Assembly: GCA_947626265.1 (NCBI GenBank) | Contig: CANQRM010000018.1 | Location: 1 to 64,000, forward strand | DNA: 64,000 bases | Source of the DNA: an uncultured Oscillospiraceae bacterium | GTDB lineage: Bacteria > Bacillota > Clostridia > Oscillospirales > Oscillospiraceae | Reading direction: 5' to 3' | Shown here: positions 29,273 to 44,421 of the stretch, piece by piece | Position numbering within the stretch: the stretch's first letter is position 1 | How the letters are laid out: each line of letters opens with the position of its first letter | The notes under the pieces: model-generated | Told to the model about the DNA's origin: nothing | The model's database searches: none | The model's input: the letters and a program-made list of their open reading frames with translations, nothing else | Made by a program: the position numbers and the translations under genes

Positions 29273-29275
29273 AAA

Positions 29276-29315
29276 GACCCTCCCTGCCGCCTGACGCGGC
29301 AGGGAGGGTCTTAAT
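29276..29315. terminator. Bidirectional terminator between acyltransferase and peptide operon
   Basis: 15-bp perfect stem GACCCTCCCTGCCGC/GCGGCAGGGAGGGTC with a 5-nt loop; T-rich on both strands (TTAATGTCTT on plus, TTTTC on minus). It closes both the trmB operon and, from the other side, the long minus-strand operon. Confidence 0.85.
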
Positions 29316-29341
29316 GTCTTATAGTCATCCCTTTTTATCTT

Positions 29342-29557
29342 TTAGTAAAGGATGAGTAGTCTTTGCGGGCACTTCGCGCGCGGGTCGCAGCCCAATGCTT
29401 CAAAGGCCTGATCATACGTACCGTAGGAACAGTTTCTGTCAGTGTAGCGACGGCAAATTAGACAATTCCTTTTAAAAAATGCATCCTTCTCCTCATCGGA
29501 CCCCCCGCCGGACACTTTTTCCAGGGTGCTCTCGTCCAGTCTCTTTTCGTCGTTCAT
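29342..29557 (-). CDS. Double-glycine-leader Cys-rich peptide 7 (last of array)
   Basis: 71 aa. Leader MNDEKRLDESTLEKVSGG, then a core with four cysteines in the array pattern NC-x2-C-x5-NC-x-YG ... AFEALG-x4-AKCP. Its tail QRLLILY differs from its siblings, which end in an SD-coding KEAW or KGG; this one is last and needs no downstream SD. The ATG overlaps the stop of peptide 6 by one base (TGATG), with AAGGAGG inside that gene. The G run after the leader is only 6 long here. Likely a secreted peptide matured by a C39-type protease encoded elsewhere. Confidence 0.7.
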   Translation of the reverse strand: MNDEKRLDESTLEKVSGGGSDEEKDAFFKRNCLICRRYTDRNCSYGTYDQAFEALGCDPRAKCPQRLLILY

Positions 29558-29778
29558 CACCAAGCCTCCTTATCAGGGCACTTCGCGTACCGGTTGCTGC
29601 CCAATGCTTTGAAAGCATCTTCGTTCGAACCATAGGGACAGGTCCCGAAGAAATTGCGGTAACAGGAATAACAATTCTCCTGCACAAATCTAACAATACG
29701 ATTCATATAATCTTGATCGTCGCCCCCCCCCGACACTTTTTCCAGGGCCTCGTCGTCCAGTCTCTTTTCGTCGGTCAT
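29557..29778 (-). CDS. Double-glycine-leader Cys-rich peptide 6
   Basis: 73 aa. Leader MTDEKRLDDEALEKVSGGG, core NCYSCYRNFFGTCPYGSNED, then AFKALGSNRYAKCPDKEAW. It is nearly identical to peptide 4, 432 bp upstream, and belongs to a tandem duplication. A G9 tract (29723-29731) encodes the triple glycine at the leader/core junction; gain or loss of one G would keep the leader but destroy the core. The final codons AAG GAG GCT TGG double as the ribosome binding site of peptide 7. Confidence 0.75.
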   Translation of the reverse strand: MTDEKRLDDEALEKVSGGGDDQDYMNRIVRFVQENCYSCYRNFFGTCPYGSNEDAFKALGSNRYAKCPDKEAW

Positions 29779-29781
29779 AGG

Positions 29782-29989
29782 TCAACCCCCCTTATAGGGG
29801 CACTTCGCGCGCGGGTTGCTGCCCAGCGTTTCAAAAGCTGTTATGCTGCTCCCATAGTAACAGTTCGGGGTGTTATTGTGGCGGCAGGAAAAGCAATTAT
29901 TCTCCTTGAATCTATAATGCGTTGTACCCCCACCCCCCCCCGGACACTTTTTCCAGGGTGCTCTCGTCCAGTCTCTTTTCGTCGTTCAT
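29782..29989 (-). pseudogene. Double-glycine-leader peptide 5, out of frame at a G9 tract
   Basis: The leader MNDEKRLDESTLEKVSGG is intact, but the tract G9-T-G5 (29927-29941) leaves the core one base out, giving a stop after 25 codons. Removing one G restores a typical core: NCFSCRHNNTPNCYYGSS, AFETLGSNPRAKCPYKGG. The restored frame ends 3 nt before the ATG of peptide 6. The frame break lies in a homopolymer, so it may be a phase-off state, a sequencing slip, or a dead copy. The ATG overlaps the stop of peptide 4. Confidence 0.65.
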
Positions 29990-30210
29990 CACCAAGCCTC
30001 CTTACAGGGGCACTTCGCGTACGGGTTGCTGCCCAATTCTTTGAAAGCATCTTCGTTCGAACCATAGGGACAGGTCCCGAAGAAATTGCGGTAACAGGAA
30101 TAACAATTCTCCTGCACAAATCTAACAATACGATTCATATAATCTTGATCGTCGCCCCCCCCCGACACTTTTTCCAGGGCCTCGTCGTCCAGTCTCTTTT
30201 CGTCGTTCAT
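29989..30210 (-). CDS. Double-glycine-leader Cys-rich peptide 4
   Basis: 73 aa, almost the same as peptide 6: leader MNDEKRLDDEALEKVSGGG, core NCYSCYRNFFGTCPYGSNED, then AFKELGSNPYAKCPCKEAW. G9 tract at 30155-30163, in frame here. It starts 3 nt after peptide 3, whose last codons AAG GGG GGT serve as its SD. Its own last codons AAG GAG GCT TGG provide the SD for peptide 5. Confidence 0.75.
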   Translation of the reverse strand: MNDEKRLDDEALEKVSGGGDDQDYMNRIVRFVQENCYSCYRNFFGTCPYGSNEDAFKELGSNPYAKCPCKEAW

Positions 30211-30213
30211 AGG

Positions 30214-30429
30214 TCAACCCCCCTTATAGGGGCACTTCGCGTCCAGGTCGCAGCCCAATTCTTTGAAGGCCTCCTTGTGTCCCCCATAGGGACAGTCAAC
30301 CTCATTGTGGCTGCAGTGAAAACAGTTTTTAGCCGCAAATATATATACCTTATTCGCATTCATAGACTCACCCTGACCGCCCGACACCTTTTCAAGAGCC
30401 TCGTCGTCCAGTCTCTTTTCCTCGCTCAT
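30214..30429 (-). CDS. Double-glycine-leader Cys-rich peptide 3
   Basis: 71 aa. Leader MSEEKRLDDEALEKVSGG, core NCFHCSHNEVDCPYGGHKEA, then FKELGCDLDAKCPYKGG, five cysteines. No poly-G tract (the junction reads GGQGES). SD AAGGAGG upstream in the 21-bp gap after peptide 2. Confidence 0.75.
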   Translation of the reverse strand: MSEEKRLDDEALEKVSGGQGESMNANKVYIFAAKNCFHCSHNEVDCPYGGHKEAFKELGCDLDAKCPYKGG

Positions 30430-30450
30430 GGTATGTTCCTCCTTGGTTTT

Positions 30451-30678
30451 TCAGCAGATATCGGGGCAGCGCGCGTTTCCGTCGCCATGGACCGCGCCGT
30501 ACTTCGACATCGGATCGCAGTACGGTGCATCCCGATAATAGGCGGCATTCAGGGCCTTACTGCAGTGTTGGCAATTGTTCATGGTAAAGTCGTACAGAAA
30601 ATCAGGATTCTCCTCATTCCCGGTCCCGCCGGACACCTTTTCCAGAGCCTCGTCGTCCAGTCTCTTCTCGTCGTTCAT
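30451..30678 (-). CDS. Double-glycine-leader Cys-rich peptide 2
   Basis: 75 aa. Leader MNDEKRLDDEALEKVSGG, core with NCQHCSKALNAAYYRDAPYC and a tail GNARCPDIC. It keeps the CxxC and the CP near the end but has a longer middle and lacks the YG...AFxxLG block. Preceded by AGAAGGAGG. Confidence 0.72.
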   Translation of the reverse strand: MNDEKRLDDEALEKVSGGTGNEENPDFLYDFTMNNCQHCSKALNAAYYRDAPYCDPMSKYGAVHGDGNARCPDIC

Positions 30679-30698
30679 AGTATGTTCCTCCTTCTGCC

Positions 30699-30908
30699 TT
30701 AATTCGGCTCGGCCTGTTTGCGGGCAGAGCATCCACCCAGGGCTTTAAAGTTGCCATAGAACTCCCACTTATTGACAGAGACGGGACATTTGCCCTTCCT
30801 CTGGCAGCCGCCGCAGTTGGCCGCATAAAACGCGTCTACCTCCTCAGCAGAGACCCCGCCGGTGACCTCTTCCAGTTTCTTCTCGTCCAGTCTCTTCTCG
30901 TCGTTCAT
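30699..30908 (-). CDS. Double-glycine-leader Cys-rich peptide 1 (first of array)
   Basis: 69 aa. Leader MNDEKRLDEKKLEEVTGG, core NCGGCQRKGKCPVSVNKWEF, then YGNFKALGGCSARKQAEPN. The most divergent core, lacking the AKCP tail. SD AAAAAGGAGG, 76 bp after the giant Sel1 gene. I see no convincing separate promoter in that gap, so the array is probably read from the long upstream operon, perhaps with processing. Confidence 0.72.
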   Translation of the reverse strand: MNDEKRLDEKKLEEVTGGVSAEEVDAFYAANCGGCQRKGKCPVSVNKWEFYGNFKALGGCSARKQAEPN

Positions 30909-30984
30909 AGGTCGAGCCTCCTTTTTGTTTCTGTCTCTTTATACGATTTACAGGGACAAAAGGGCTAACGGACCGGGAAATTTT

Positions 30985-33900
30985 TTACGCCGCGGGCTCC
31001 GCCGCCAGGTCCGCCAGCCGCTGTACGGCGGCCTCCACGCCCCTGTCCGCGGCCTGGGTGTAGTAATCCATGGCCTTGTCCATGTCCGCCTCTACGCCCA
31101 GGCCGTTTTCATATATCGTGCCCAGGGCGTACAGGGACTCGTCGTCCTCGTCCATGGCCTCCTCGAAGAGCTTCCGGGCCTGGGCATAGTCCTGCTCCAC
31201 GCCCTCGCCTTCCAGGTACAGATATCCCAGGTAACCCTGGCAGTAGGCGTCGCCCATGTCCGCGCCCAGCTTGAGCCACTTGTACGCCTCTTCGCAGCTC
31301 TGCTCCACGCCCTCGCCGTAATAGTACATGTACCCCAGATCGGCGGCGGAGCTGGCTTCGCCGTGGGCCGCGGCCAGCTCATAGAGCTCCACTGCCTTGG
31401 CATGATCCTGCTCCACGCCCACGCCGTCGCGATAGCACCGCGCCAGGGAGTCGGCTGCCTGGTAGTTGTTCTCCTCCACGGCGGCGGTCAGCAGCTCCAC
31501 AGCCTTAGCCTCGTCCTGCTCCACGCCCTTGCCGTCCCGGTAAAGGTAGGCCAGGACGCGCTTTTCGGTGAAACCAAGATCGTCCTCTTCCTCTTTCTGG
31601 GTGAGGCGGGCAGCCAGGTCGGCAAACATCTCCCCGGCCTTAGCCTCGTCCTTCTCCACGCCGTCGCCGTACAGATACAGGCACGCCAAGTAATAGGCGG
31701 CCTCCGCGTTGTCCTGCTCCGCCGCCTTTTCGAACCACTCCGCCGCCTGGGCATAGTCCTGCTCCAGCGAACCCTTGCCGAACAGATAGGCCTCGCCTAC
31801 GCCCTCCATGGCCGTGGCGTTCTCTCCGTCCACCTCCAGCGCCGTGTTATAGAGCTCAAAGCTCTTGTCCAGGTCCACCTCCACGCCTTTGCCGCGGGAA
31901 TACATATAGGCCAGGCTCAGCGCGGCCTGGTTTTCACCCAGCTCCATGGACTTTTCGTAATACTCCGCGCCCTTGGCATCATCTTCTTCCACGCCCTCGC
32001 CCTGGCTGTACAGCACACCCAGGTTGTACGCGGCGTAGGCGTCGCCAAGGTCCGCCGCCTTTTCGTAATACTCTACGGCCCTGGCGTAATCCTGCTCCAC
32101 GCCCACGCCTTCGTTGTAGAGCCAGCCCAGGTTGTAATACGCCTCGGGCAGCTCCTGCTCCACGGCCTTTTCAAGCCACTGGACCGTCTGGGCGTAGTCC
32201 TGGTCCACACCTTCACCGGCGTAATACAAATACGCCAGGTCATACATCGCCCCGCGCACGCCGTGCTCCGCCGCCTGGGTGTAGAGCTCCGCGGCCTGGG
32301 CGTCATCCTTCTCCACGCCGACGCCGTAGTAATAGAACTGGCCCAGATAGTACACGGCCCTGCTGTCGCCCATTTCCGCGGCGGCGGCCATGATCTCTGC
32401 GGACTTGGCCTCGTCCTTGTCCACGCCCAGGCCAAATTCATACATGCAGGCGAGAACGCGCGCCTCCGCGGCGGTGAGCTCACCCTCGTCCATGGCGGTG
32501 AGCCGGGCGGCCACGCGCTCATAGAGCTCCTGGGCCTTGGCCTCGTCCTGCTCCACACCGGTGCCGTCGGCATAGCATCCGGCCAGATTGTAAATGGCCT
32601 CCGGCTGGTCCTGCTCCGCCGCCTTTTCGTACCACTCCACGGCCTTGGCCTCGTCTATATCCACCACGCCGTAGCCGCACTCATAGAAGTCGCCCGCCAT
32701 ATACATGCCGTCGGCGCTGCCCAGCGCCGCGGCCTGGGTGTAGTACTCAAAGGCCTTGGCCTTGTCAGGCTCCACGCCCTCGCCGAAATAGTACATATTC
32801 CCCAGCGCATAGGCGGCCCGGGGCTCGCTCCATCCGGCCGCGGCGGTCAGGTATTCCACCGCCCTGGCATAGTCCTGCTCCACGGCCGCGCCGTCACGAT
32901 AGAAGCAGCCCAGCGTGTACAGGGCGTTCGCATCGTCGTCCTCCGCCGCGGCGGTCAAAAGCTCCACGCCTTTGCCCTCATCCTTTTCCACGCCGTCACC
33001 GTTGACGTACATCTTGCCCAGCAGCGCCTGCTCGCTGGCGGAGAGAGTGTCCCTCTCTTCCCACTCCTGCAGCAGCGGGGCGGCCTGGGCATAGAGCTCC
33101 GCGGCCCTGGCCCCGTCCTTTTCCACGCCTTCGCCCTGGTCATACATGGAGCCCAGCTGCACCATGGCCTCGGCGTTTTCATCGTCCTCCTCCAGGGCCT
33201 TTTCATACCACGCCACGGCCTGGGCGTCGTCCACGTCCACCGCGCCGAAGCCCATGTCACAGAGCTCGCCCATCAGCAGCATGCCGTAGGGATCGTCCGC
33301 GTCCGCGGCCTGCTGTGCCAGCTCCAGGGCCTTGGCGGCATCCCGCTCCACGCCCTGGCCGTAGAGATAGAGCTTTGCCAGGCGGTACATCGCATGGCTA
33401 TTGCCCATATCCACGGCCTGGGTGTACAGCTCCAGGGCCTTGGCCTTGTCCTTCTCCACGCCATGGCCGCGCTCGTACATGTCGGCCATGTTGGTGAGGG
33501 CCAGCCCTTCGCCCATATCCGCGGCCTGGGTATAGAGCTCAATGGCCTTGTCATAGTCCTGCTCCACGCCCTGGCCGAACTCATACATATTGCCCAGGTT
33601 GTTGATGGCCATGCTGTTGCCCAGCTCCGCCGCCTGGCTGTAGAGCTCAAAGGCCTTTTCATCATCCTCTTCCACGCCGTTGCCACGGCTGTACATATAG
33701 CCCAGGTTCAGCATGGCCCAGTCGTAGCCCAGGTCCGCCGACTGGGTGTAATACGCCACGGCCCTGTCATAGTCCTGCTCCACGCCCTCGCCGTGGGCAT
33801 ACAACCAGCCCAGGGTGTACGCGGCGACGGCGTCGCCCATGTCCGCGGCCTGGGTATAGAGCTCAATGGCCTTGGCGTAGTCCTGCTCCACGGCCGTGCC

Positions 33901-36900
33901 GGTTTCATACATCCAGCCCAGGTTATTCGCGGCGTAGGCGCTGCCCAACTCCGCGGCCCGGGTATAATACTCCACAGCCTTGGCGCCGTCCTCCTCCACA
34001 CCGTCGCCGTGGGCATACATCCAGCCCAGGGTGTAATAGGCTTCGGGGAGGTCCTGCTCCGCCGCCTTTTCGATCCACTCGAGCGCCTTGGCGTAGTCCT
34101 GGTCCACGCCGTCGCCTTCCAGGTACATCGCGCCCAGCTCGTACATCGCCCGGCGCACGCCGTGCTCCGCCGCCAGGGTGTAGAGCTCCACGGCCTTGCC
34201 GTAGTCCTGCTCCACGCCGGTGCCGAAGTAATAGTACTGGCCCAGATAGTGCACGGCCCGGTAGTCTTCCTCTTCCGCGGCGGCAGCCATGAGCTCTGCG
34301 GACTTGGCGTCGTCCTGCTCCACGCCCTCGCCATCGGCATAGAGGCAGGCGAGGATGCGCGCCTCAGCGCCGGTCAGCTCGCTCTCGTCCTTGGCGGTGA
34401 GCTGGGCGGCCAGGCGGTCGAAAAGCTCCTGGGCCTTGGCCTCGTCCTGCTCCACGCCCTCGCCGTACTCATAATCGTATGCCAGATAGAACAGGGCCTC
34501 CGGCTGGTCCTGCTCCGCCGCCTTTTCATACCATTCCACAGACTTGGCCTGGTCTATATCCACCACGCCGAAGCCGTTTTCATAGAAGTCGCCCACCATG
34601 TACTGGGCCTCCGCGTCGCACAGCTCCGCCGCCTGGCTGTACCAGTCAAAGGCCTTGGCCAGGTCCTGCTCCACGCCGACGGCGAACATATACATGTCGG
34701 CCATATTGTACATGGCCCAGGTGTCGCCCAGGTCCGCGGCCTGGGTGTAATACTCCATGGCCTTGGCGCTGTCCTTCTCCACGCCCTCGCCCGATTCGTA
34801 AAAATAGCCCAGGTTGTAGAGCGCGACCGCCCTTGCCTCGTCCTCATTGTTCTCATCCGCGGCAAGTTCACTGTATTCCATGCTCCTGCCGTAGTCCGGC
34901 TCCACGCCCTCGCCGAAATAATACACATTGGACAACGCGTTCTGGGCCGGGGCATAGCCCAGGTCCGCCGCCTGGGTGTAATACTCTATGGCCTTGGCGC
35001 TGTCCTGCTCCACGCCCATGCCCTCGGAATACATATAACCCAGCTCGTACATGGCCCGGATGACGCCGTGCTCCGCCGCCTGGGCGAAGAGCTCCGCTGC
35101 TTTGGCGTAGTCCTGCTCCACGCCTATGCCGTTCCGATAGGCGACGCCCAGGGCGGCCGCCGCCTCGTAGTTACCGTCCTCCGCGGCCTCGGCATAGAGG
35201 GCCGCGGCCTTTTCCTCGTCCTTTTCCAGGATGCCGCCGCTGACGTAGAGGGTGGCCAGGACCCGTTTCTCCGTGGAGGCGAGGGAGCCCTCTTCCTCCT
35301 TCTCCGTGAGCTTTTCCGCCAGGTCCTTTATGATCTCTTTGGCCTTGGCCTCGTCCTTTTCCACGCCGTGGCCGGTCAGATAGAGCCGCGCCAGGGCCAG
35401 CATGCCCTCCTCGTCCTTCTGCTCCGCGGCCTTTTCGTACCACGCCACCGCCTGGGCCATGTCCTTGTCCGTCACGCCGAAGCCGTACTGACAGAACCGG
35501 CCCATCTGGAACTGGGCGTCCTCGTCGCCCATGTCCGCGGCCTGGGTATAGCAGTCAAATGCCTTGGCGTAATCCTGCTCCACCCCGACGCCGTACATAT
35601 ACAAGTCGCCCATGCAGTCCGGGCCGTCGGGATTGCCGGCCTCCCCGGCCTTGGCATACCACTTCAGGGCCTCTTCGGTGTTTTGCTCCACGCCCCGGCC
35701 GTAGGCATAGGCGCTGCCCAGGCGGGACATGGCCAGGCTCTCGCCCAGCTCCGCCGCCTGGGTGTAAAACTCTGCGGCCTTGGCGTCGTCTTCCTCCACG
35801 CCCCAGCCATGTCCGTACATATAGCCCATGCCGTACAGCGCATAGCCTCTGGCGTTGTCGGACGCGTCCGACGCCGCCACCTGGGTGAACAGCTCCATGG
35901 CCCTGTCGTAGTCGTGGTCCACGCCATCGCCGTTGGCGTACAGATAGCCCGCCGCGTCCATAGCATAGACATAACCCAGGGCCGCGGCCTTTTCGTACCA
36001 CTCTATCGCCTGGGCGCTATCCTGCTCCACGCCCTCGCCGGCCTCGCAGGCGTAGCCCATATCGTACATGGCCGCGCGGATGCCGTGCTCCGCCGCCATG
36101 CGGTAGTATTCCACGGACTTTTCGTAGTCCACGTCCACGCCTTCGCCCTGGTAATACATGTCGCCTGCGTACTTCGCCGCCTCCCAGCTGCCGTCCGCCG
36201 CGGCGGCGGCGAAGAGCGCCGCGGCCTTAGCGTCGTCCTCTTCCAGGCCGTAGCCGTGGTCATAGAGCTTGCCCAGCACCCACTTCTCGGCGGCGTTGAG
36301 CTCACTCTCGTCCACAGCGGTGAGCTGCGCGGCAAGGCTGTCAAAGAGCTCCTGGGCCTTCGCCTCGTCCTGCTCCACGCCCTTGCCGTTATTATAGAAC
36401 TTTGCCAGGACGTAGGCGGCCTCCGCCTGGTCCAGAGCCGCGGCCTTTTCGTACCACGCCGCCGCCTGGGCCGGGTCCTTTTCCACCACGCCGTAGCCGT
36501 TTTCGCAGAAATCACCCACCTGATACTGGGCGTTGGCGTCGCCGTCCTCCGCAGCCTGGGTGTAGTATTCAAAGGCCTTGGCCTTGTCCAGCTCCGCGCC
36601 CTCAGCGTAGTTATACATATCGCCCAGGGCGGTCATGGACCACATGTCGCTCAGGGCCGCGCCCTGCTCGTAGAACTCCTTTGCCTTGGCCAGGTCCTGC
36701 TCCACGCCGGCGCCGACCTGATAGACCTGGCCCAGGTAGGCGTAAGCCTCCGGCACACCGTGGGCCGCCGCGTCGGAGAGCATCTCAATGCCCTTTGCCT
36801 CGTCCTTCTCCGTGCCCAGGCCCATGATGTACATCACGCCCGCCTGGCACTCGGCCTCAAAGATATCGTCCTCCGCCGCGGCGGTGAAATACGCCAGGGC

Positions 36901-39399
36901 CTTTTCATCGTCCTGCTCCACGCCCTCGCCGTTGGCATAGAGGTAGCCCAGCACCAGCGCGTTGTAGCTGTAGTCCTCGTCCTCCGAGGCGGTCTCGAAG
37001 GCCTGGGAGAAGAGCTCCGCAGCCTTGTCCTTATCCATCTCCACGCCCTGGCCCTGCTCATAGAGCCAGCCCAGATACAGCATGGCCTCGGCGTCTCCCT
37101 GGTCCGCGGCCTTCTGGTAGAGCTCCGCCGCCTTAGCATAGTCCACGTCCACCACGCCGTAGCCGTAGTCGTAGTACCGGCCCAGGGAGGTCTGGCCGTC
37201 CACATAGCCCAGCTCCGCCGACTGGGTGTAGAGCTCGAAGGCCTTCGCCTTATCCATCTCCACGCCCATGCCGTAGTCATAGAACCAGCCCACATTCTCC
37301 GCGGCGTAGCCCAGATCGTCGTCGTTCCGGGCGCGGGTCATGCTCAGCTCATAGTTCTCCCGCGCCTTGGCATAGTCCTCTTCCCCGCCCATGCCGTACA
37401 TATACATGTCGGCCAGGTAGAAGCTGACGTCGGGGGCGCCCAGAGCCCCGCCCTGTTCCAACAGCTCCCGGCCCTTTTCATAGTCCTGCTCCACGCCGGT
37501 GCCGTCCACATAGGCGTGGCCCAGATAGTAATATGCCTCGGGTACGCCGTGAGCCGCGGCGTCTTCCAGCAGCTCAATGCCCCTGGCCTCGTCCTTCTCC
37601 GTGCCGTAGCCCATGAGATACATCCCGCCCGCATGGCACTCGGCCTCGAAGATATCGTCCTCCGCCGCGGCGGTGAAGTACGCCAGGGCCTTCTCATCGT
37701 CCTGCTCCACGCCCTCTCCCATCTGGTAAAGGTAGCCCAGCACCAGCTGGTTATAGCTGTAGTCCTCATCCTCCGAGGCAGTCTCAAGGGCCTGAGCATA
37801 GAGCTCGTCGGCCTTGGCCTGGTCCATCTCCACGCCCTCGCCCTGCTCATAGAGCCAGCCCAGATACACCATGGCCTCGGCGTCGCCCTGGTCCGCGGCC
37901 TTCTGGTACCACTCCGCGGCTGTGGCGTAGTCCTTGTCCATTATGCCGTAGCCGTAGTCATAGAACCGGCCCAGGGAGGTCTGGCCGTCCACATAGCCCA
38001 GCTCCGCGGATTGAGTGTAGAGCTCGAAGGCCTTGGCCTTGTCCATCTCCACGCCCATGCCGTACTCATAGAACCAGCCGTCGTTCTCCAGAATGTAGCC
38101 CAGGGTGGCGTCGTCCAGCCCGGCGATGGTCATGGCCTGCTCATAATACTCCCGGGCCTTGACATAGTCCTCCTCCACGCCCAGGCCGTACATGTATATG
38201 TCGGCCAGGTAGAAGCAGACGTAGGGGTCGTCCAGGGCCTCGGCCTCGGTCAGAAGCTCCAGGGCTTTGGCATAGTCCTGCTCCACGCCCTCGCCCCTGC
38301 CGTACATCACGCCCAGAAGCACTATAGCCTCGGGCATGTTCATGTCCGCGCACTGGTTCATAAGCTCCAGGGCCTTGTCGTACTCGCCCGCCTCGTAATA
38401 GCACCGGGCCAGGTCGAACATGCCGTCCGGGTCGCCGATCTCCGCAGAGGAGGTGAAGTACTCCATGGCCTTGTCGGCGTCTTCCTCCACGCCCAGGCCG
38501 TTTTTGTAGATATAGCCCAGCAGGAACCAGCCGTTATCATACCGCGCGTCCTCGCCGGCCTCGGTGAGGGTATCCAGCGCCTGGCCGTAGAGCTCGTTGG
38601 CCTTGGCCTCATCCTGCTCCACGCCCTCGCCGCTGGCGTAAAGGTCACCCAGGAAGACCATGCCGCCCGCGTCGCCCTGATCTGCGGCCTTCTGGTACCA
38701 CTCTGCCGCCTGGGCGCAGTCTATGTCCACCACGCCGTAGCCGAACTGATATATCCGGCCCACATACTCCTGGGCGTAGGCGGAGCCAGCCTCTGCGGCC
38801 TGAGAGAACATCTCATAGGCCTTCTCAAAGCTCTGCTCCGTGCCCTTGCCGTAGTAATAGGCCTCGCCCAGGCACTCGGCGCACTGGATCTTGTAAGGTC
38901 CATCATCGCATTCCTCATAGCCCCTGGTCCAGCACTCCACGGCCTTGCCGTAGTCCTTCTCCGTGCCGGCGCCGTTCCAATAGAGGATGCCCAGGTTGGC
39001 GCAGGCCTCTGAAGCCAGCTCCGCGGCCTGGGTGAACAGCTCAAAGGCTTTGGCCTCGTCCTTTTCCACGCCCTCGCCGCAGTAATACATCGTGCCCAGT
39101 TCAAGCATGCTCCCGCCGTCGCCGCCGTCCGCGGCCTTCTGGTACATCTCCGCGGCCTTGGCGTAGTCCTGCTCCACGCCCTCGCCGTAAGAATACATGT
39201 CGCCCAGCGCCGCGCTGGCGGGGACATAGTCCTTCTCCGCCGCCTTGGTCAGCAGCTCCTCGCCCTTGGCGGCGTCGCCGCCCTGGATGGCCTCCATGGC
39301 CTCGTCATACATCTCCTCGGGCTTTTTTCCGCAGCCCGCGCACAGGCCCAGCAGCATGGCCGCCGCCAGGACGAACGCCAATACCTTCCGCAGCTTCAT
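30985..39399 (-). CDS. Giant Sel1-repeat lipoprotein, 2804 aa
   Basis: The N-terminus is a lipoprotein signal (GLCAGC, lipidated Cys23), so the chain should hang from the outer face of the membrane. Practically the whole remainder is Sel1-like repeats of about 36 residues, with the motif A-x2-LG-x-MY-x2-GEGVEQDYAKA-x-E-x-Y-x-QAA, of the order of 70 units forming a superhelix. It is strongly acidic with no catalytic domain visible. Near residues 410-930 there is a 263-aa super-repeat (789-bp DNA period, compare 37201 and 37990), a sign of recent internal expansion. Sel1 arrays bind proteins or peptides. Being 30 bp behind a second Sel1 protein gene and ahead of seven secreted-peptide genes, a peptide-binding, receptor or immunity scaffold is a reasonable guess, not shown. 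SD GGGGAGGT. Confidence 0.85.
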   Translation of the reverse strand: MKLRKVLAFVLAAAMLLGLCAGCGKKPEEMYDEAMEAIQGGDAAKGEELLTKAAEKDYVPASAALGDMYSYGEGVEQDYAKAAEMYQKAADGGDGGSMLELGTMYYCGEGVEKDEAKAFELFTQAAELASEACANLGILYWNGAGTEKDYGKAVECWTRGYEECDDGPYKIQCAECLGEAYYYGKGTEQSFEKAYEMFSQAAEAGSAYAQEYVGRIYQFGYGVVDIDCAQAAEWYQKAADQGDAGGMVFLGDLYASGEGVEQDEAKANELYGQALDTLTEAGEDARYDNGWFLLGYIYKNGLGVEEDADKAMEYFTSSAEIGDPDGMFDLARCYYEAGEYDKALELMNQCADMNMPEAIVLLGVMYGRGEGVEQDYAKALELLTEAEALDDPYVCFYLADIYMYGLGVEEDYVKAREYYEQAMTIAGLDDATLGYILENDGWFYEYGMGVEMDKAKAFELYTQSAELGYVDGQTSLGRFYDYGYGIMDKDYATAAEWYQKAADQGDAEAMVYLGWLYEQGEGVEMDQAKADELYAQALETASEDEDYSYNQLVLGYLYQMGEGVEQDDEKALAYFTAAAEDDIFEAECHAGGMYLMGYGTEKDEARGIELLEDAAAHGVPEAYYYLGHAYVDGTGVEQDYEKGRELLEQGGALGAPDVSFYLADMYMYGMGGEEDYAKARENYELSMTRARNDDDLGYAAENVGWFYDYGMGVEMDKAKAFELYTQSAELGYVDGQTSLGRYYDYGYGVVDVDYAKAAELYQKAADQGDAEAMLYLGWLYEQGQGVEMDKDKAAELFSQAFETASEDEDYSYNALVLGYLYANGEGVEQDDEKALAYFTAAAEDDIFEAECQAGVMYIMGLGTEKDEAKGIEMLSDAAAHGVPEAYAYLGQVYQVGAGVEQDLAKAKEFYEQGAALSDMWSMTALGDMYNYAEGAELDKAKAFEYYTQAAEDGDANAQYQVGDFCENGYGVVEKDPAQAAAWYEKAAALDQAEAAYVLAKFYNNGKGVEQDEAKAQELFDSLAAQLTAVDESELNAAEKWVLGKLYDHGYGLEEDDAKAAALFAAAAADGSWEAAKYAGDMYYQGEGVDVDYEKSVEYYRMAAEHGIRAAMYDMGYACEAGEGVEQDSAQAIEWYEKAAALGYVYAMDAAGYLYANGDGVDHDYDRAMELFTQVAASDASDNARGYALYGMGYMYGHGWGVEEDDAKAAEFYTQAAELGESLAMSRLGSAYAYGRGVEQNTEEALKWYAKAGEAGNPDGPDCMGDLYMYGVGVEQDYAKAFDCYTQAADMGDEDAQFQMGRFCQYGFGVTDKDMAQAVAWYEKAAEQKDEEGMLALARLYLTGHGVEKDEAKAKEIIKDLAEKLTEKEEEGSLASTEKRVLATLYVSGGILEKDEEKAAALYAEAAEDGNYEAAAALGVAYRNGIGVEQDYAKAAELFAQAAEHGVIRAMYELGYMYSEGMGVEQDSAKAIEYYTQAADLGYAPAQNALSNVYYFGEGVEPDYGRSMEYSELAADENNEDEARAVALYNLGYFYESGEGVEKDSAKAMEYYTQAADLGDTWAMYNMADMYMFAVGVEQDLAKAFDWYSQAAELCDAEAQYMVGDFYENGFGVVDIDQAKSVEWYEKAAEQDQPEALFYLAYDYEYGEGVEQDEAKAQELFDRLAAQLTAKDESELTGAEARILACLYADGEGVEQDDAKSAELMAAAAEEEDYRAVHYLGQYYYFGTGVEQDYGKAVELYTLAAEHGVRRAMYELGAMYLEGDGVDQDYAKALEWIEKAAEQDLPEAYYTLGWMYAHGDGVEEDGAKAVEYYTRAAELGSAYAANNLGWMYETGTAVEQDYAKAIELYTQAADMGDAVAAYTLGWLYAHGEGVEQDYDRAVAYYTQSADLGYDWAMLNLGYMYSRGNGVEEDDEKAFELYSQAAELGNSMAINNLGNMYEFGQGVEQDYDKAIELYTQAADMGEGLALTNMADMYERGHGVEKDKAKALELYTQAVDMGNSHAMYRLAKLYLYGQGVERDAAKALELAQQAADADDPYGMLLMGELCDMGFGAVDVDDAQAVAWYEKALEEDDENAEAMVQLGSMYDQGEGVEKDGARAAELYAQAAPLLQEWEERDTLSASEQALLGKMYVNGDGVEKDEGKGVELLTAAAEDDDANALYTLGCFYRDGAAVEQDYARAVEYLTAAAGWSEPRAAYALGNMYYFGEGVEPDKAKAFEYYTQAAALGSADGMYMAGDFYECGYGVVDIDEAKAVEWYEKAAEQDQPEAIYNLAGCYADGTGVEQDEAKAQELYERVAARLTAMDEGELTAAEARVLACMYEFGLGVDKDEAKSAEIMAAAAEMGDSRAVYYLGQFYYYGVGVEKDDAQAAELYTQAAEHGVRGAMYDLAYLYYAGEGVDQDYAQTVQWLEKAVEQELPEAYYNLGWLYNEGVGVEQDYARAVEYYEKAADLGDAYAAYNLGVLYSQGEGVEEDDAKGAEYYEKSMELGENQAALSLAYMYSRGKGVEVDLDKSFELYNTALEVDGENATAMEGVGEAYLFGKGSLEQDYAQAAEWFEKAAEQDNAEAAYYLACLYLYGDGVEKDEAKAGEMFADLAARLTQKEEEDDLGFTEKRVLAYLYRDGKGVEQDEAKAVELLTAAVEENNYQAADSLARCYRDGVGVEQDHAKAVELYELAAAHGEASSAADLGYMYYYGEGVEQSCEEAYKWLKLGADMGDAYCQGYLGYLYLEGEGVEQDYAQARKLFEEAMDEDDESLYALGTIYENGLGVEADMDKAMDYYTQAADRGVEAAVQRLADLAAEPAA

Positions 39400-39429
39400 T
39401 TTGTATGTACCTCCCCGGTAAATTATTTT

Positions 39430-41388
39430 TTATTCAGACAGGTCCGCCAGCGCCTGGGCGGCGTCCTCTTCCACGCCCTTGCCAAAGTAGTACATGTCGC
39501 CCAGGTCGTACGCGGCCCAGTAGTCGTTGTCCTCCACGGCGGCAGCCAAGAGCGCCGCGGCCTTTGCGTCGTCCTCCTCCACGCCGTATCCGTAGTCATA
39601 GAGCTTGCCCAGCGCCCGCTCTTCGCTGGCGGAGAGCTCCTCCTCCGGCTTTTCCGTGAGACGCGCGGCCAGGCTTTCGTAGAGCTCCTGGGCCTTTGCC
39701 TCGTCCTGCTCCACGCCCTCGCCGTTTTTATAGAGCCTCGCCAGGGCGTAGGCGGCCATCGGGTGGTCCTTTTCGGCAGCCTTTTCGTACCACTCCGCCG
39801 CCTGGGCGCAGTCTATATCCACCACGCCGTAGCCGTTTTCATAGAAATCGCCCATGGAATACAGAGCCTCTGCGCTGCCAAGCTCCGCGCCCTGGGTATA
39901 GTATTCAAAGGCCTTGGCCTTATCCACTTCCGTGCCCAGGCCGCAGTCATAGAAGAAGCCGGCGTTATTGGCGGCCGCGCCCCGGATATCGTTGTCGCCC
40001 GCGCCCAACACAGCCTTTTCCATCCACTGAAGGGCCTTGACGTAGTCCTGCTCCACACCTTCGCCGGAATAGTACATCTCGGAGAGATACTCTCCGGCAT
40101 AGGTGCTGCCAAGCGCCGCCGCGGCCTCGTAATATTCCGCCGCTTTGGCGTAGTCCTGCTCCACGTCCTCGCCGAAATAGTACATGTCGCCCAGCATGAT
40201 CTGGGCGAAGGTGTCCTGCCGCTCCGCGCCAAGGGTGAACAGCTCAAAGGCCTTGTCATAGTCCTGCTCCACGCCCTTGCCGCTGACATACATATGCCCC
40301 AGCAGGCCCGGCGCCAGCATGTCACCGCCCTCGGTCGCCTGGGTCAGCAGTTCCAGGGCCTTGTCATAGTCCTGCTCCGCGCCCCGGCCCAGAAGATACA
40401 TCTTTCCCAAAATGCGCTGGGACGTGGCGACCGCAAGCTCGTCGTCGGCAGAGAGGATATCGAAGACCTGACCGTACAGCTCCTCTGCCTTTGTCTCGTC
40501 CCGCTCCACGCCAAGGCCATTTTCATAGAGGGCGCCCAGACGGTACATAGCCTCGACATTGCCCGCGTCCGCGGCTTTCTGGTACCACTCCGCCGCCTGG
40601 GCATAGTCCACGTCCATGACGCCGTAGCCCTCAGCGCAGAACTCGCCCATGAACTCCATGGCGTTTATGACGCCGCTCTCCGCCGCCTGCCGGGCCAGCT
40701 CCATGGCCTTGGCCATATCCCGCTCCACGCCCTCGCCGTAGAAGTACATCACGGCCAGGTCCTGCTGAGCCGTGGGGTCGCCCAGGTCCGCCGCCTGCTG
40801 GTAGAGTTCCACCGCCCTGGCGTCATCCTTCTCCACGCCCAGGCCCTCGTCATAGGCATAGCCCAGACCCGCCATGGCCGTGGGATAGCCCAGGTCCGCC
40901 GAGCGCTGATAGAGCTCCACGGCCTTTTCGTAATCCTGCTCCACGCTCTCGCCGGTGGCGTACATGTGGGCCAGGTTGCACAGGGCCACGGCGTTATCCT
41001 GGTCCGCGGCCTTTTCCGTCCACTGCCGGGCCAGGTCCATATCCGGCTCCGTGCCCTGGCCGCTGTAATACATGTATCCCAGCAGCATCTGGGCCTCGGC
41101 GTCACCCATCTCCGCGCCCTGGCCGGCCCACTGGAAGGCCTGGTCCGGGTCCGGCTCGGTGCCTGTTCCGGACATATACATGTACGCCAGCATGCCGGCT
41201 GCCTCGCCGCTGCCGGCCTCCGCCGCGGCGGTGAACTTTTCCAGCGCGCCCGCCGTGTCGCCCGCGTCAAAGGCCTCCCGCCCCTGCTCGCAGAGAGCGG
41301 AGGCGTCCTCCGACGCCAGGGCCGCGGGCCCCAGGCTCAGCACCATCACCGCCGCCAGAAGCAGCGCCAACATTTTCTTGAGCTTCAT
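39430..41388 (-). CDS. Secreted Sel1-repeat protein, 652 aa
   Basis: Sec signal peptide (cleavage near ALA-SED, about residue 25) without a lipobox, so probably exported and free or wall-associated. The mature protein is about 16-17 Sel1-like repeats of the same type as the giant neighbour (GTGTEPDPDQAFQWAGQGAE, GEGVERDMAKAMELARQAAE). It lies 32 bp after the GHKL kinase gene with SD AGGAGGT and 30 bp before the lipoprotein, so all three share a transcript. Its sequence is close to segments of the 2804-aa protein, suggesting one arose from the other. Confidence 0.85.
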   Translation of the reverse strand: MKLKKMLALLLAAVMVLSLGPAALASEDASALCEQGREAFDAGDTAGALEKFTAAAEAGSGEAAGMLAYMYMSGTGTEPDPDQAFQWAGQGAEMGDAEAQMLLGYMYYSGQGTEPDMDLARQWTEKAADQDNAVALCNLAHMYATGESVEQDYEKAVELYQRSADLGYPTAMAGLGYAYDEGLGVEKDDARAVELYQQAADLGDPTAQQDLAVMYFYGEGVERDMAKAMELARQAAESGVINAMEFMGEFCAEGYGVMDVDYAQAAEWYQKAADAGNVEAMYRLGALYENGLGVERDETKAEELYGQVFDILSADDELAVATSQRILGKMYLLGRGAEQDYDKALELLTQATEGGDMLAPGLLGHMYVSGKGVEQDYDKAFELFTLGAERQDTFAQIMLGDMYYFGEDVEQDYAKAAEYYEAAAALGSTYAGEYLSEMYYSGEGVEQDYVKALQWMEKAVLGAGDNDIRGAAANNAGFFYDCGLGTEVDKAKAFEYYTQGAELGSAEALYSMGDFYENGYGVVDIDCAQAAEWYEKAAEKDHPMAAYALARLYKNGEGVEQDEAKAQELYESLAARLTEKPEEELSASEERALGKLYDYGYGVEEDDAKAAALLAAAVEDNDYWAAYDLGDMYYFGKGVEEDAAQALADLSE

Positions 41389-41420
41389 TGTATGTACCTC
41401 CTGTGCTTTCGCGCACGTAT

Positions 41421-42854
41421 TTACTGTTTATTCGTTCCAGCGGGGCGGAAGGTCCAATACCCCCCCCCGCTTTTATTCATGCCTGTTGGCATATTGAGCC
41501 GCATCCGCGCGGTGAAGGTCCTCGTCTCGGCGTTGAAGCGGAACATGGCGCTGCCGCCGTATTTTTGCGCCGTATGGGCTATGCTCCGCAGGCCGTAGCC
41601 CACCTTCCCGTCGCTCAAAAACGCCTCCGCCGGGGAGAAGCCGTCCGCCGTCTGGTAGCGCCGGTCCAGGCGCACCTCCCGGCATGAATTGGCTATCTCC
41701 ACGGCCAGGGAGCCCTGCACTGTGCCCACCTGCACCCGTATCCACTTGTCGTCCGGGCACTTCCGGCAGGCGTTCACCGCGTTTTCCAGGGCGTTGCCGA
41801 ACAGCACGGTAAGGTCCGCCGGCTCGATGGACAGCTCCCCGCACGCCGCCTGGATGACGCAGCGGATGCCCTCCTCCCGGGCCAGGCCCGCGTAGTACTG
41901 CAAAAGCCCGTTCACCACCATGTTTTCGCAGAAGACCTCGTTCAGCCGCTGGGCGGTGGCGTCCAGCACCTGGGCCAGGTACCCCTTCATCTCCTCCAGC
42001 TTGCCCTTCTGGAGCATCTCGTTCAGGGCGTTATAGTGGTGGCGCATGTCATGGCGCATCCGCCGGGTGCTCTCCATGTCGCTGACGATCCGCTCATATT
42101 GCAGCTGCTGCATCTCCATGGCCCGCTGGTAGTCGCTGTCCCGCTTGCGCCGCACCGACTCCCGGAACACCAGCCAATAGATGAGCACCTGGTCCAGCAG
42201 CACCACCACGAACAGCAGCATCTCCTGCACATACCGCCGGTAGCCCACCCGGTAGAAGGTCATATCCGCGCCCATCAGAAGGGCCAGGAACACGGCCGTG
42301 GACACCACCAGGATGAAAAACTCCTGGCGCATCTGCTCCATCTCGATCTCCTGCAGGTACTCCCGCAGAGGCCGGAGCACGAACCGGTCCATGATAGGAA
42401 ACAGCAGCACCGCCGTGAGCGCGTACATCACCACGCCGCAGGGGGAATAGACGGCCCCGCTCTCAAGCTGGGTGGAAAGGCCCAGAGGCTCCGCCAGCAC
42501 GCCGATGAGGATATTCACCAGCCAGTACTGGGACGCGCCGTAGAAGAACACCGCGAACAGCACCAAGACCTTTTTGATCGCCGCCTCCCGCACCAGCCAG
42601 CTCTCGGCGGCCAGTGTCAGCAGTATGGCGGCCAGCATGTAGAGGTTCGCGCCCAGCGCCACATCCCAGGCCGCCGCGGCGCCCATCAGGGCGGGGAACA
42701 GCGCCGCCAGCCCAACGCCCAGCCCGGCGAAGGCGGCGAAGACCGTCCTCCTCCCGAACCGGAGGGACCCCTCGGAGAAGGGCAGAAAGACCATCAGCAT
42801 GCAGGGGAAGACCTGCACGAAAAAGCCCGCCGCGTTTCGCAGATATGCGCTCAT
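41421..42854 (-). CDS. AgrC-like GHKL sensor histidine kinase
   Basis: 477 aa. Six to seven N-terminal membrane helices (residues about 10-235), a coiled linker, the phosphoacceptor region RRMRHDMRHHYNALNEML (His268) and a GHKL ATPase: FGNALENAVNAC N-box and GYGLRSIAHTAQKYGGSAMF G-box. This is the architecture of peptide-pheromone receptors such as AgrC, PlnB and ComD. Its ATG overlaps the regulator stop. A G9 tract (41460-41468) lies about 14 codons before the stop, so slippage would change the C-terminal tail only. The ligand may be one of the downstream peptides; that is inference. Confidence 0.88.
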   Translation of the reverse strand: MSAYLRNAAGFFVQVFPCMLMVFLPFSEGSLRFGRRTVFAAFAGLGVGLAALFPALMGAAAAWDVALGANLYMLAAILLTLAAESWLVREAAIKKVLVLFAVFFYGASQYWLVNILIGVLAEPLGLSTQLESGAVYSPCGVVMYALTAVLLFPIMDRFVLRPLREYLQEIEMEQMRQEFFILVVSTAVFLALLMGADMTFYRVGYRRYVQEMLLFVVVLLDQVLIYWLVFRESVRRKRDSDYQRAMEMQQLQYERIVSDMESTRRMRHDMRHHYNALNEMLQKGKLEEMKGYLAQVLDATAQRLNEVFCENMVVNGLLQYYAGLAREEGIRCVIQAACGELSIEPADLTVLFGNALENAVNACRKCPDDKWIRVQVGTVQGSLAVEIANSCREVRLDRRYQTADGFSPAEAFLSDGKVGYGLRSIAHTAQKYGGSAMFRFNAETRTFTARMRLNMPTGMNKSGGGYWTFRPAGTNKQ

Positions 42855-43582
42855 GGCGTCCCCTCTCCCATGCCGCCGCGCCGGGAAAGCCTGTCGAAGA
42901 CGTAGTTATCGTAGGCCGCGCGGATGGCGGCGCTCTGCCGCACCGCGATGGGCAGACGGCTGCCGTCCCGGAGAGTGCATATGTCCGTCTCCATATGTAC
43001 GATGTGATCCATATTCACCACGATGCCCCGGTTGATGCGCAGAAAGCTTGCGTCCAGCTTCTGCACCAGCTCGTTGAAGGGCGTCCAGACCTTCAGCCGC
43101 CGGCCATCGGAAAGGGAGACGTTCACCGCGTGGTTGTCGTTTTCCAGAAGGGATATCTGGTCCATGAAGACCGTGTACCGGTCCGGGCCCACGGTGAAGG
43201 ATATCCGCTCCCGCTGCCGGGCGCGCAGCTCCGTCAGCCGCCGAAACGCCTCCACCACGCCCTCGGTGGTCACCGGCTTTACCAGGTAGTGCAGGGCATG
43301 CAGGGAGAAGGCCTCCACCGCGTGCTCCCGGCTGGTGGTGACAAAGGCGACGCCCGTCTCCGGGGATACCTCCCGCAGCGCTTTGGCTATGTCCATGCCA
43401 TTCTCGCCGGGCATGTAGATATCCAAAAACACGATGTCGAAGGGGGGTGTCTCCCGGGCCGCCTCCAGCAGGGCCGCCCCGCTCAAAAACTTTTCCGCGC
43501 TCCGGGTCGGGTCCCACCCGTGCAGCGCCTCGTCGAACTGTTCCTGTTCCGCAAGGTCATCGTCGCAGACCGCGATCCGCAT
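42851..43582 (-). CDS. LytTR-family response regulator
   Basis: 243 aa. Receiver domain (CDDD pocket, phosphoacceptor Asp54 in IVFLDIYMP, TTS, KPV) followed by a LytTR DNA-binding domain (DQISLLENDNHAVNVSLSDGRRLKVWTPFNELVQKL ... FLRINRGIVVNMDHIVHM). With the GHKL kinase this is an AgrA/ComE-type pair, usually answering peptide signals. First gene of the long operon, so it would autoregulate through the repeats just upstream (43671-43698). SD GGGAGGA. Confidence 0.92.
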   Translation of the reverse strand: MRIAVCDDDLAEQEQFDEALHGWDPTRSAEKFLSGAALLEAARETPPFDIVFLDIYMPGENGMDIAKALREVSPETGVAFVTTSREHAVEAFSLHALHYLVKPVTTEGVVEAFRRLTELRARQRERISFTVGPDRYTVFMDQISLLENDNHAVNVSLSDGRRLKVWTPFNELVQKLDASFLRINRGIVVNMDHIVHMETDICTLRDGSRLPIAVRQSAAIRAAYDNYVFDRLSRRGGMGEGTP

Positions 43583-43638
43583 ATGCCATTCCTCCCGCTG
43601 CGGGTCCTCATTCCATACATTCTCTATTCCAACTACAC

Positions 43639-43667
43639 ATTATAACATTATTTTTCCGTGTTGGCAC
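43639..43667 (-). promoter_or_regulatory. Promoter of the LytTR/Sel1/peptide operon
   Basis: Extended -10 TGTTATAAT on the minus strand with a poor -35 (TGCCAA or GTGCCA), the profile of an activator-dependent promoter. Transcription would start about 60 nt before the regulator gene. Confidence 0.6.
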
Positions 43668-43670
43668 TAA

Positions 43671-43698
43671 CATTTCAGGGCCGTATTCGGCCATTTCA
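43671..43698 (-). promoter_or_regulatory. Putative LytTR operator: TGAAATG direct repeats 21 bp apart
   Basis: Two TGAAATG copies on the minus strand, start-to-start 21 bp, abutting the -35. Known LytTR regulators bind two about 9-bp direct repeats separated by about 12 bp at this position. The repeat sequence itself is not one I recognise. Confidence 0.5.
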
Positions 43699-43896
43699 CG
43701 CTCAGCCGCTGCGGAAATAATGCTTCTATTATAAATTTAACACTATGGCAGGAACTGTTCAATGCGGCGGCTCTGACTTTTTCGCAGTCAAAGCTGATTT
43801 TTGCGAAATGGCCGCTTTCGGGCTTTTCACGGGGCAAAAACTGTGGTATGCTGAGGCAGAAAGAAGACATGATAACGCCAGGGAGCAGAATGGAGC

Positions 43897-44358: not shown

Positions 44359-44362
44359 GGGG

Positions 44363-44391: not shown

Positions 44392-44421
44392 GTCCTTATG
44401 TTCACGAAATGAGGTTTTATT

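What the first reader, a model, noticed from the sequence alone, without database searches (positions are those of the whole stretch)
29342..43582. A 14-kb operon joins an AgrCA-like signalling pair, two Sel1-repeat surface proteins and seven double-glycine Cys-rich peptides
Seen: RR (43582), GHKL kinase, 652-aa secreted Sel1 protein, 2804-aa Sel1 lipoprotein and seven peptide genes all run on the minus strand with gaps of 76 bp or less and no internal terminator I can find; promoter at 43639 and terminator at 29276 bound it. Known: LytTR/GHKL pairs commonly sense secreted peptides whose GG-leaders are cut by C39 proteases. Inference: the peptides are the ligands or effectors, and the Sel1 proteins are surface receptors, immunity or scaffold proteins. 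I know no described system with this combination.
Basis: partly seen in the sequence, partly recalled or inferred. Interest (0 to 1): 0.88.

Follow-up and report, generated by a model that had tools for sequence, protein, structure and literature searches.

The report
Master operon of secreted-peptide gut regulon
A gut bacterium carries an operon that joins a two-gene sensor switch, two helical-repeat surface proteins (one giant) and a string of small cysteine-rich peptides, and the DNA control site in front of it recurs in front of a peptide exporter and scattered peptide genes elsewhere in the genome, so the operon looks like the control centre of a dispersed peptide-secretion system.

Summary
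The operon is real at the stated coordinates: LytTR response regulator, GHKL kinase, 652-aa and 2804-aa Sel1 proteins, then double-glycine Cys-rich peptides (six intact; a seventh is frameshifted at a G tract). A related species has the same operon at the same site. The key new evidence is a 34-bp direct repeat (21-bp period, as for LytTR regulators) at 43774-43807. In 35 genomes of the genus it occurs in exactly the 8 that carry this regulator (49 sites, 37 of them not at a regulator gene; reversed control 0). In the window's genome it also heads the operon of the only C39 peptide exporter over cut-off (NHLM/NHLP type, on another contig), a second Sel1-peptide operon and several peptide genes. 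Strong relatives of the giant Sel1 protein occur only in regulator-positive genomes; 10 of 13 are directly followed by a double-glycine peptide gene. Regulator relatives lie near NHLM exporters in 12 of 80 loci, all from outside the genus. Best reading: autoregulated control operon of a genome-dispersed, NHLM-exported peptide system, with Sel1 solenoids as surface partners. That the kinase senses the peptides, and that Sel1 proteins bind them, is untested. New variant of a known kind.

The parts
42851..43582 (-). LytTR-type response regulator (243 aa)
   Evidence: PF00072 59.2 bits, PF04397 41.6 bits; orthologs in 8 of 35 genus genomes at E 1e-30
41421..42854 (-). GHKL sensor histidine kinase (477 aa)
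   Evidence: PF14501 55.2 bits; 92% identical in G027
39430..41388 (-). SelA: secreted Sel1-repeat protein, 652 aa, 16 Sel1 stretches
   Evidence: PF08238; AlphaFold2 model from the single sequence is all-helical, mean pLDDT 85.8
30985..39399 (-). SelB: giant Sel1-repeat probable lipoprotein, 2804 aa, 62 Sel1 stretches
   Evidence: PF08238 1552 bits; its N-terminal 60 aa find 13 genes at E below 1e-15 including itself, all in regulator-positive genomes
30699..30908 (-). double-glycine Cys-rich peptide 1
   Evidence: ortholog in G027
30451..30678 (-). double-glycine Cys-rich peptide 2 (ATG at 30678)
30214..30429 (-). double-glycine Cys-rich peptide 3
   Evidence: core dN/dS 0.14 against G027 from five substitutions
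29989..30210 (-). double-glycine Cys-rich peptide 4 (near-identical to peptide 6)
29779..29989 (-). peptide 5, frameshifted at a G9 tract at the GG site; only leader plus 7 residues are read
   Evidence: intact ortholog in G027
29557..29778 (-). double-glycine Cys-rich peptide 6
29342..29557 (-). double-glycine Cys-rich peptide 7
43774..43807 (-). LytTR-type box: direct repeat with 21-bp period; proposed binding site of the regulator
   Evidence: 0 mismatches to the genus pattern, 0 in 100 shuffles; conserved upstream of 12 regulator genes; 49 sites in 8 of 35 genomes
43735..43762 (-). promoter-like hexamers TTGAAC-16-TTAAAT directly downstream of the box (inferred)
   Evidence: similar hexamers at this place in the alignment; sequence
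   Evidence: number of such hits in the region is at chance
29274..29312 (.). 17-bp palindrome, probable terminator shared with the convergent gene

Best explanation
This is the autoregulated control operon of a genome-dispersed secreted-peptide system. Step 1 (inferred): the GHKL kinase phosphorylates the LytTR regulator in response to an unknown outside signal. Step 2 (supported by sequence conservation, binding not measured): the regulator binds a 34-bp direct repeat at its own operon and at further transcription units, among them the NHLM/NHLP C39-peptidase exporter operon on another contig, Sel1-peptide operons and scattered double-glycine or Nif11-leader peptide genes. Step 3 (inferred from homology): the peptides made here are cut after their GG motif and exported in trans by that exporter. 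Step 4 (inferred from conserved gene order): the Cys-rich cores work outside the cell together with SelA and SelB, helical solenoids of which SelB is probably lipid-anchored, as surface partners (scaffold, receptor or self-protection).
For: Operon and domains. Same operon and flanks in G027. Conserved block upstream of 12 regulator genes. Box in exactly the 8 of 35 genomes with the regulator, reversed control 0; 37 of the 49 sites are not upstream of a regulator gene, and each of the 8 genomes has at least one such site. In the loci scanned with a weight matrix, boxes score 40-62 bits and the best other hit 8.8 (a 13.3-bit hit overlaps a true box by one repeat); 25 loci of regulator-less genomes (369,881 bases, some overlapping) reach 4.3. 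Box heads the exporter operon in G000, G027, G014, G033, and in G021 the exporter follows in the same gene run as the boxed regulator. Exporter over the curated cut-offs of TIGR03796 and TIGR03797 and the only PF03412 hit over cut-off in the genome. SelB type: 13 genes at E below 1e-15 in 5 genomes, all regulator-positive; 10 of 13 followed within 284 bp by a GG peptide gene. Regulator relatives in 12 of 80 loci have NHLM exporter genes within the flank, with Nif11 peptides in some loci read; many carry the box. C39 recognition lay in the last 13 leader residues in LahT150 (PMC6363468, passages); the leaders here have 18.
Against: No binding, expression or export was measured. The box was derived from regulator upstream regions, so its match there is circular; only the 37 other sites are independent. 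Own-genome peptide loci L061, L062, L066 and L067 have no box. Two of 13 SelB genes (G014:C2, G033:C29) have no peptide gene directly downstream and no box in the fetched stretch; one (G009:C59) runs off its contig. Eight regulator-less genomes have an NHLM exporter over cut-off, and G009, G012 and G018 have the regulator without one (regulator x exporter p=0.10). Outside the genus only 31 of 71 loci with enough upstream sequence have a box of 12 bits or more. The five window peptides scanned match no curated leader family over cut-off.
Confidence: 0.68

Rival explanations
1. Auto-inducing bacteriocin or quorum circuit: one or more of the peptides is the ligand of the kinase (as in sil), the others are bacteriocins, and the Sel1 proteins give immunity.
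For: A LytTR regulator with its kinase, secreted peptides and one direct-repeat box at several promoters is the layout of the sil regulon (PMC2766830, passages). Autoregulation is implied by the box.
Against: No window peptide stands out as a pheromone; all six intact ones have a Cys-rich core. In other genera related kinase-regulator pairs sit with different, Nif11-leader peptides, and G018 has the pair but no match to the peptide profile. I recall no Sel1 immunity family; this was not searched.
Confidence: 0.3
2. Structural or nutrient function: the peptides are small metal-binding (zinc-ribbon-like) modules exported to bind metal or other ligands, and the Sel1 proteins are cell-surface adaptors unrelated to signalling or killing.
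For: Of 167 GG-leader ORFs listed, 48 have CxxC...CxxC and 127 have 4-5 Cys (the list includes a few chance ORFs). Weak zinc-ribbon matches in related peptides.
Against: Those zinc-ribbon matches are all below cut-off; the AlphaFold2 model of peptide 3 is of low confidence (64.3). Disulphide-bonded peptides fit equally well.
Confidence: 0.25
3. Coincidental neighbourhood: unrelated genes happen to lie on one strand and are separately controlled.
For: Peptide units and Sel1 units also occur elsewhere without the kinase.
Against: Gaps of 76 bp or less, conserved whole operon in G027, SelB-to-peptide gap of 77-79 bp at seven loci, shared box.
Confidence: 0.04

Closest known systems
NHLP/Nif11 (N11P) precursor families with the TIGR03794/03796/03797 exporter (Haft et al. 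2010, PMC2887384, passages seen)
   Same: Double-glycine peptides in paralogous sets with variable cores; NHLM exporter with C39 peptidase in the same genome; Nif11-leader peptides among the box-bearing genes.
   Different: Window leaders are short (18 aa) and below the curated leader models; no modification enzyme was seen beside them; the exporter is on another contig; the terms Sel1 and histidine kinase do not occur in that paper's main text.
LahA/LahT of Lachnospiraceae C6A11 (PMC6363468, passages seen)
   Same: One C39 transporter for several divergent double-glycine precursors of Nif11 type.
   Different: lah is a lanthipeptide operon; here peptides are spread over many contigs and co-occur with Sel1 proteins.
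sil quorum-sensing regulon of streptococci (PMC2766830, passages seen; PMC9298176, passages)
   Same: LytTR regulator and kinase, peptide system, direct-repeat box with 21-bp period shared by several promoters.
   Different: Ligand known there, unknown here; Sel1 proteins and an NHLM exporter are not mentioned in the passages seen.
Agr systems
   Same: GHKL kinase plus LytTR regulator.
   Different: No AgrB on this contig; the genome's three AgrB genes sit by other kinases.

Membership tests
LytTR response regulator with GHKL kinase | Receiver plus LytTR domain; GHKL ATPase domain | tested here: met
   All over Pfam cut-offs
LytTR response regulator with GHKL kinase | Direct-repeat site, 9-10 bp units with 11-12 bp between them (21-bp period) | tested here: met
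   Box; period as quoted in PMC2766830. Binding itself not tested
AgrCA | AgrB beside the pair; AgrA model over cut-off | tested here: not met
   AgrB only on C16, C1, C2; AgrA model 26.1 of 400 bits. AgrD not searched
NHLM/NHLP peptide export system | TIGR03796 and TIGR03797 exporters over cut-off in the genome | tested here: met
   950.4 (cut-off 853.3) and 751.4 (709.4) bits on contig C11
NHLM/NHLP peptide export system | TIGR03794 HlyD-like protein over cut-off | tested here: not met
   157-aa protein, 43.9 of 156.2 bits, model positions 1-59 of 421 only
NHLM/NHLP peptide export system | Precursor with Nif11 or NHLP leader | tested here: not met
   The five window peptides scanned match neither over cut-off (peptide 6, near-identical to 4, and broken peptide 5 not scanned); Nif11 domain 24.8 of 23.8 bits in another peptide of the genome, L069
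NHLM/NHLP peptide export system | Exporter cuts and exports these peptides | not testable with these tools
   Only presence and shared box shown
Class II bacteriocin with double-glycine leader | PF10439, PF03047 or TIGR01847 over cut-off | tested here: not met
   Weak hits below cut-off
Sel1-repeat proteins | PF08238 repeats over cut-off | tested here: met
   16 and 62 stretches

The most novel reading that the evidence does not exclude
A previously undescribed class of secretion regulon in gut Clostridia: one LytTR regulator, through a single conserved box, switches on an NHLM exporter and many scattered Cys-rich peptides that assemble on giant Sel1 solenoid lipoproteins at the cell surface, a modular peptide-on-scaffold system whose repeat number and peptide set differ between species.
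Probability: 0.3. Interest if true: 0.87.

Novelty: new variant of a known kind. Interest (0 to 1): 0.72.

Why it matters
Double-glycine and Nif11 peptides with an NHLM exporter have been catalogued, but I found no described control circuit for them in the open-access searches made (0 papers; 2 papers judged unrelated from the listing, not read; two searches gave RiPP papers, of which two were looked into). Here a single 34-bp motif predicts which genes belong, links peptide genes to an exporter on another contig, and points to a new partner class, giant Sel1 probable lipoproteins. That makes function testable: one binding assay, one co-expression profile and one pull-down would go far. It also gives a DNA signature for finding the regulon in other gut genomes.

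Tried and rejected
AgrCA identity: rejected. Exporter within the operon: none; found on C11. Phase variation by G tracts as a general feature: rejected as general, since G runs of 7 or more at the GG site were seen in 3 of 167 listed GG ORFs (window peptides 4 and 6, which also have G9, were missed by that listing, which asks for a ribosome site); kept as a local oddity. RNA elements: no Rfam match at gathering score in 28000-45000. Peptide fold: model too uncertain for a fold search. SelA model not searched, since Sel1 is already certain. Regulator x exporter co-occurrence in the genus is not significant (p=0.10), unlike peptide x exporter (10 of 13 against 4 of 22, p=0.001) and regulator x box.

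Limits: gene calls outside the window come from my own script, trained on 27 window ORFs; it misses genes in low-GC genomes (e.g. L164) and may misplace starts. Names such as dGTPase, dnaG, rpoD, MATE, IPP isomerase and PheS are recognised by eye and come from no call. That 'Lapin' in record titles means rabbit is recalled. Sel1 genes of the genus were fetched from a listing that showed only the best 150 or so matches.
Full report
What is there. The minus strand of 29342-43582 carries, in order, a LytTR response regulator, a GHKL kinase, a 652-aa secreted Sel1 protein (SelA), a 2804-aa Sel1 protein with a lipoprotein-like start (SelB) and seven small genes. Pfam gives Response_reg 59.2 and LytTR 41.6 bits, HATPase_c_5 55.2 bits, 16 Sel1 stretches in SelA and 62 in SelB. 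Gaps are 76 bp or less. The six intact peptides share a leader of the type MNDEKRLDxxxLEKVSGG and a Cys-rich core, in four of them of the type NCxxC...(C)xYG. The seventh reads its leader and stops seven residues later because of a G9 tract; its core lies in another frame. In the related genome G027 the counterpart of that gene is intact while a different peptide gene is frameshifted at its own G tract.

Conserved as a unit. G027 has the same operon between the same flanking genes: regulator 95%, kinase 92%, SelA 962 aa, SelB with an open frame of 3084 codons, and seven peptide genes, one of them broken. Between the two species dN/dS is 0.15 for the regulator and 0.21 for the kinase; three peptide cores give 0.14, 0.32 and 0.85, from few substitutions.

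The exporter is elsewhere. The genome has one C39 peptidase over the Pfam cut-off, on contig C11. It is an NHLM/NHLP exporter: TIGR03796 950.4 bits (cut-off 853.3) and, next to it, TIGR03797 751.4 (709.4); the neighbouring HlyD-like protein is short and below cut-off. Double-glycine peptides lie beside it and on other contigs. The window-peptide profile has 21 matches at E 1 or better in the genome, eight of them in the window itself, and matches at E 0.1 or better in 26 of 99 genomes, the own one included: 14 in the genus, 12 outside it, where the best is E 0.0015. A looser pattern lists 167 GG-leader ORFs in 47 fetched loci of the genus, 127 with 4-5 Cys (a few are chance ORFs). Across 35 genus genomes, peptide matches occur in 10 of 13 with the exporter over cut-off and 4 of 22 without (p=0.001).

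Giant Sel1 genes and peptides belong together. The first 60 residues of SelB find 13 genes at E below 1e-15, itself included, in 5 genomes (G000 3, G027 4, G014 2, G033 2, G009 2); eight weaker hits follow, mostly SelA-type, among them two in G021 and one in regulator-less G024 at E 9.6e-6. The five genomes, and G021, carry the regulator. Ten of the 13 have a GG peptide gene within 284 bp downstream, seven of them at 77-79 bp. Of the other three, G014:C2 has a peptide gene 2.9 kb upstream in the same run, G033:C29 has none within 6 kb, and G009:C59 runs off its contig. The 17 other Sel1 ORFs of at least four repeats that I fetched outside peptide clusters, a few with a signal-like start, have no GG gene within 6 kb; three short secreted ones (L096, L151, L153) lie inside peptide clusters. 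SelA-type genes stand directly before SelB in five places (window; G027 C13, C23, C3; G009 C59).

The box. Aligning 320 bp upstream of 12 regulator genes of the genus shows one conserved block, TTCGnAAAAGTCAGGTTTGAyTTCGAAAAyGTCA, two 13-bp repeats with a 21-bp period, followed by TTGA and, some 17 bp on, TAAAAT-like hexamers in most. LytTR regulators bind two direct repeats of 9-10 bp with 11-12 bp between them (PMC2766830, passages), the same period. In the window it lies at 43774-43807 with no mismatch to the pattern and in none of 100 shuffles. In 35 genus genomes, with up to 3 mismatches, it occurs at 49 places in exactly the 8 genomes that have the regulator (G000, G009, G012, G014, G018, G021, G027, G033) and nowhere in the other 27; the reversed pattern never occurs (p=4e-8). 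Twelve of the 49 are the regulator sites from which the pattern came; 37 are not, and each of the 8 genomes has at least one of these.

What the box may control. By my gene calls all 49 sites point at a gene start 30-301 bp downstream (for C11:42847); three overlap a small called ORF. The first gene is the regulator (12), a STAS gene at the head of the exporter operon (4: G000, G014, G027, G033), a GG or Nif11-type peptide or fragment (11), a STAS or C39-like gene at the head of a Sel1-peptide operon (2), an M13-type peptidase (5, by likeness to L094:1277-3295, which has both M13 domains), a dGTPase-like gene before dnaG- and rpoD-like genes (4), a MATE-like gene or fragment (4), an IPP-isomerase-like gene (2) or other (5). 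The labels dGTPase, dnaG, rpoD, MATE and IPP isomerase are by eye. In G021 the exporter follows in the same gene run as the boxed regulator. With a weight matrix, boxes in the scanned loci score 40-62 bits; the best other hit is 8.8, apart from a 13.3-bit hit overlapping a true box by one repeat; 25 loci of regulator-less genomes (369,881 bases, some overlapping) reach 4.3. The matrix also shows one further site on C11 (L060 16252, 41.9 bits) that the pattern missed. Against a universal rule: peptide loci L061, L062, L066 and L067 of the same genome have no box, nor do the fetched stretches around the two SelB genes without an adjacent downstream peptide gene.

Other genera. The regulator alignment finds relatives in other Clostridia; of 555 the best 80 were kept, most of them from MAGs titled Lapin. 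A related kinase lies in the fetched stretch in 60 of 80 and NHLM exporter genes in 12 of 80 (many stretches are cut by contig ends). Seven loci were read: five have STAS, HlyD-like and NHLM genes or Nif11-leader peptides behind the pair (L173, L178, L192, L193, L197), two (L164, L182) do not; no one locus shows all parts. A box of 12 bits or more stands within 350 bp upstream of the regulator in 31 of 71 loci outside the genus with at least 120 bp upstream; 30 of these 31 have a regulator of 60% identity or more. A whole-genome search of 10 such genomes finds boxes in 9 (21 sites, reversed control 0). About half are at the regulator. Others lie before STAS proteins (2), a small anti-sigma-like/ECF/Nif11-peptide cluster (1), secreted-looking proteins and, in G102, 101 bp before a SelA-type Sel1 gene in a cluster with GG/Nif11 peptides; two have no called gene downstream. 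So the regulator-box circuit is wider than the genus, and the Sel1 addition is seen in this genus and in G102, whose kinship is not told. One further locus with small Sel1 ORFs (L229) has a regulator of only 35% identity.

How it most likely works. Shown by sequence: operon, domains, box, its distribution, the exporter, the linkage of SelB with peptides. Inferred: the regulator binds the box and activates its own operon and the exporter; the peptides are cut at GG and leave through the NHLM exporter. LahT150, a C39 protease from Lachnospiraceae, recognises the last 13 leader residues and tolerates varied cores (PMC6363468, passages). Least certain: that Cys-rich cores act on or with the Sel1 solenoids. 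SelA is modelled as all-helical (pLDDT 85.8, single sequence); the peptide model is poor (64.3).

Known or new. Every component class is known: NHLP/Nif11 peptides with this exporter (PMC2887384, passages), one exporter for several precursors (PMC6363468), LytTR quorum regulons with direct-repeat boxes (PMC2766830). The combination with giant Sel1 proteins, the short leaders and the dispersed regulon under one box were not found in print in these searches of an open-access library: Sel1+double-glycine+LytTR (0 papers), NHLM+bacteriocin+double-glycine (41, 0), Nif11+NHLM+export (47, 0), Nif11+Clostridia+histidine kinase (48, 2, listing only), LytTR+NHLP (67, 0), Sel1 repeat+lipoprotein+peptide export (84, 0). 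Searches gave papers on RiPPs and on LytTR bacteriocin regulation, of which four were looked into by passages. Subscription papers and preprints were not searched. Hence new variant of a known kind, with high interest because the motif makes the function testable.

Noticed in passing
window 29723-29731, 29933-29941, 30155-30163; L070 about 3850-3925: G9-G10 tracts at the GG cleavage codons of several peptides; in the window one peptide and in G027 a different one are out of frame there. Possible on/off switching, or assembly error.
   Followed up: partly
window 41460-41468: Another G9 tract near the 3' end of the kinase gene.
   Followed up: no
L299 4316-4349, L307, L303, L313: In four genomes a regulator box sits about 100 bp upstream of what looks by eye like a dGTPase-dnaG-rpoD run, near Nif11 peptide genes; replication or sigma genes might be under the peptide regulator.
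   Followed up: no
L060, L094, L151, L173, L338: NHLM-associated operons contain STAS proteins, in L151 a SpoIIE-phosphatase/HATPase protein, and in L094 and L338 an ECF sigma with a small partner gene: a partner-switching module.
   Followed up: partly
L339 6446-7498, L340 6080-8608: In other genera Nif11-leader peptides have cores that look like zinc ribbons (CPxC...CxxC); Pfam zinc-ribbon matches are below cut-off.
   Followed up: partly
L142 1001-1216: In G018 the gene after the kinase encodes a 71-aa zinc-ribbon-like protein without a GG leader.
   Followed up: no
L063 13473-13748: A third copy of the regulator in the genome is truncated (91 aa) but keeps its box and downstream peptide genes.
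   Followed up: no
L246 12894-14636: Behind a SelB gene without peptide neighbour, a 580-aa ORF begins with a leader-like sequence.
   Followed up: no
L143 8883-8916, L145 1850-1883, L149 7313-7346, L151 7600-7633: A secreted M13-type peptidase gene carries the box in five places, in some beside the regulator; it could process the peptides outside the cell.
   Followed up: partly
L068 13257-14033: A secreted papain/C39-like protein lies between a STAS protein and a giant Sel1 gene in the boxed operon on C17.
   Followed up: no
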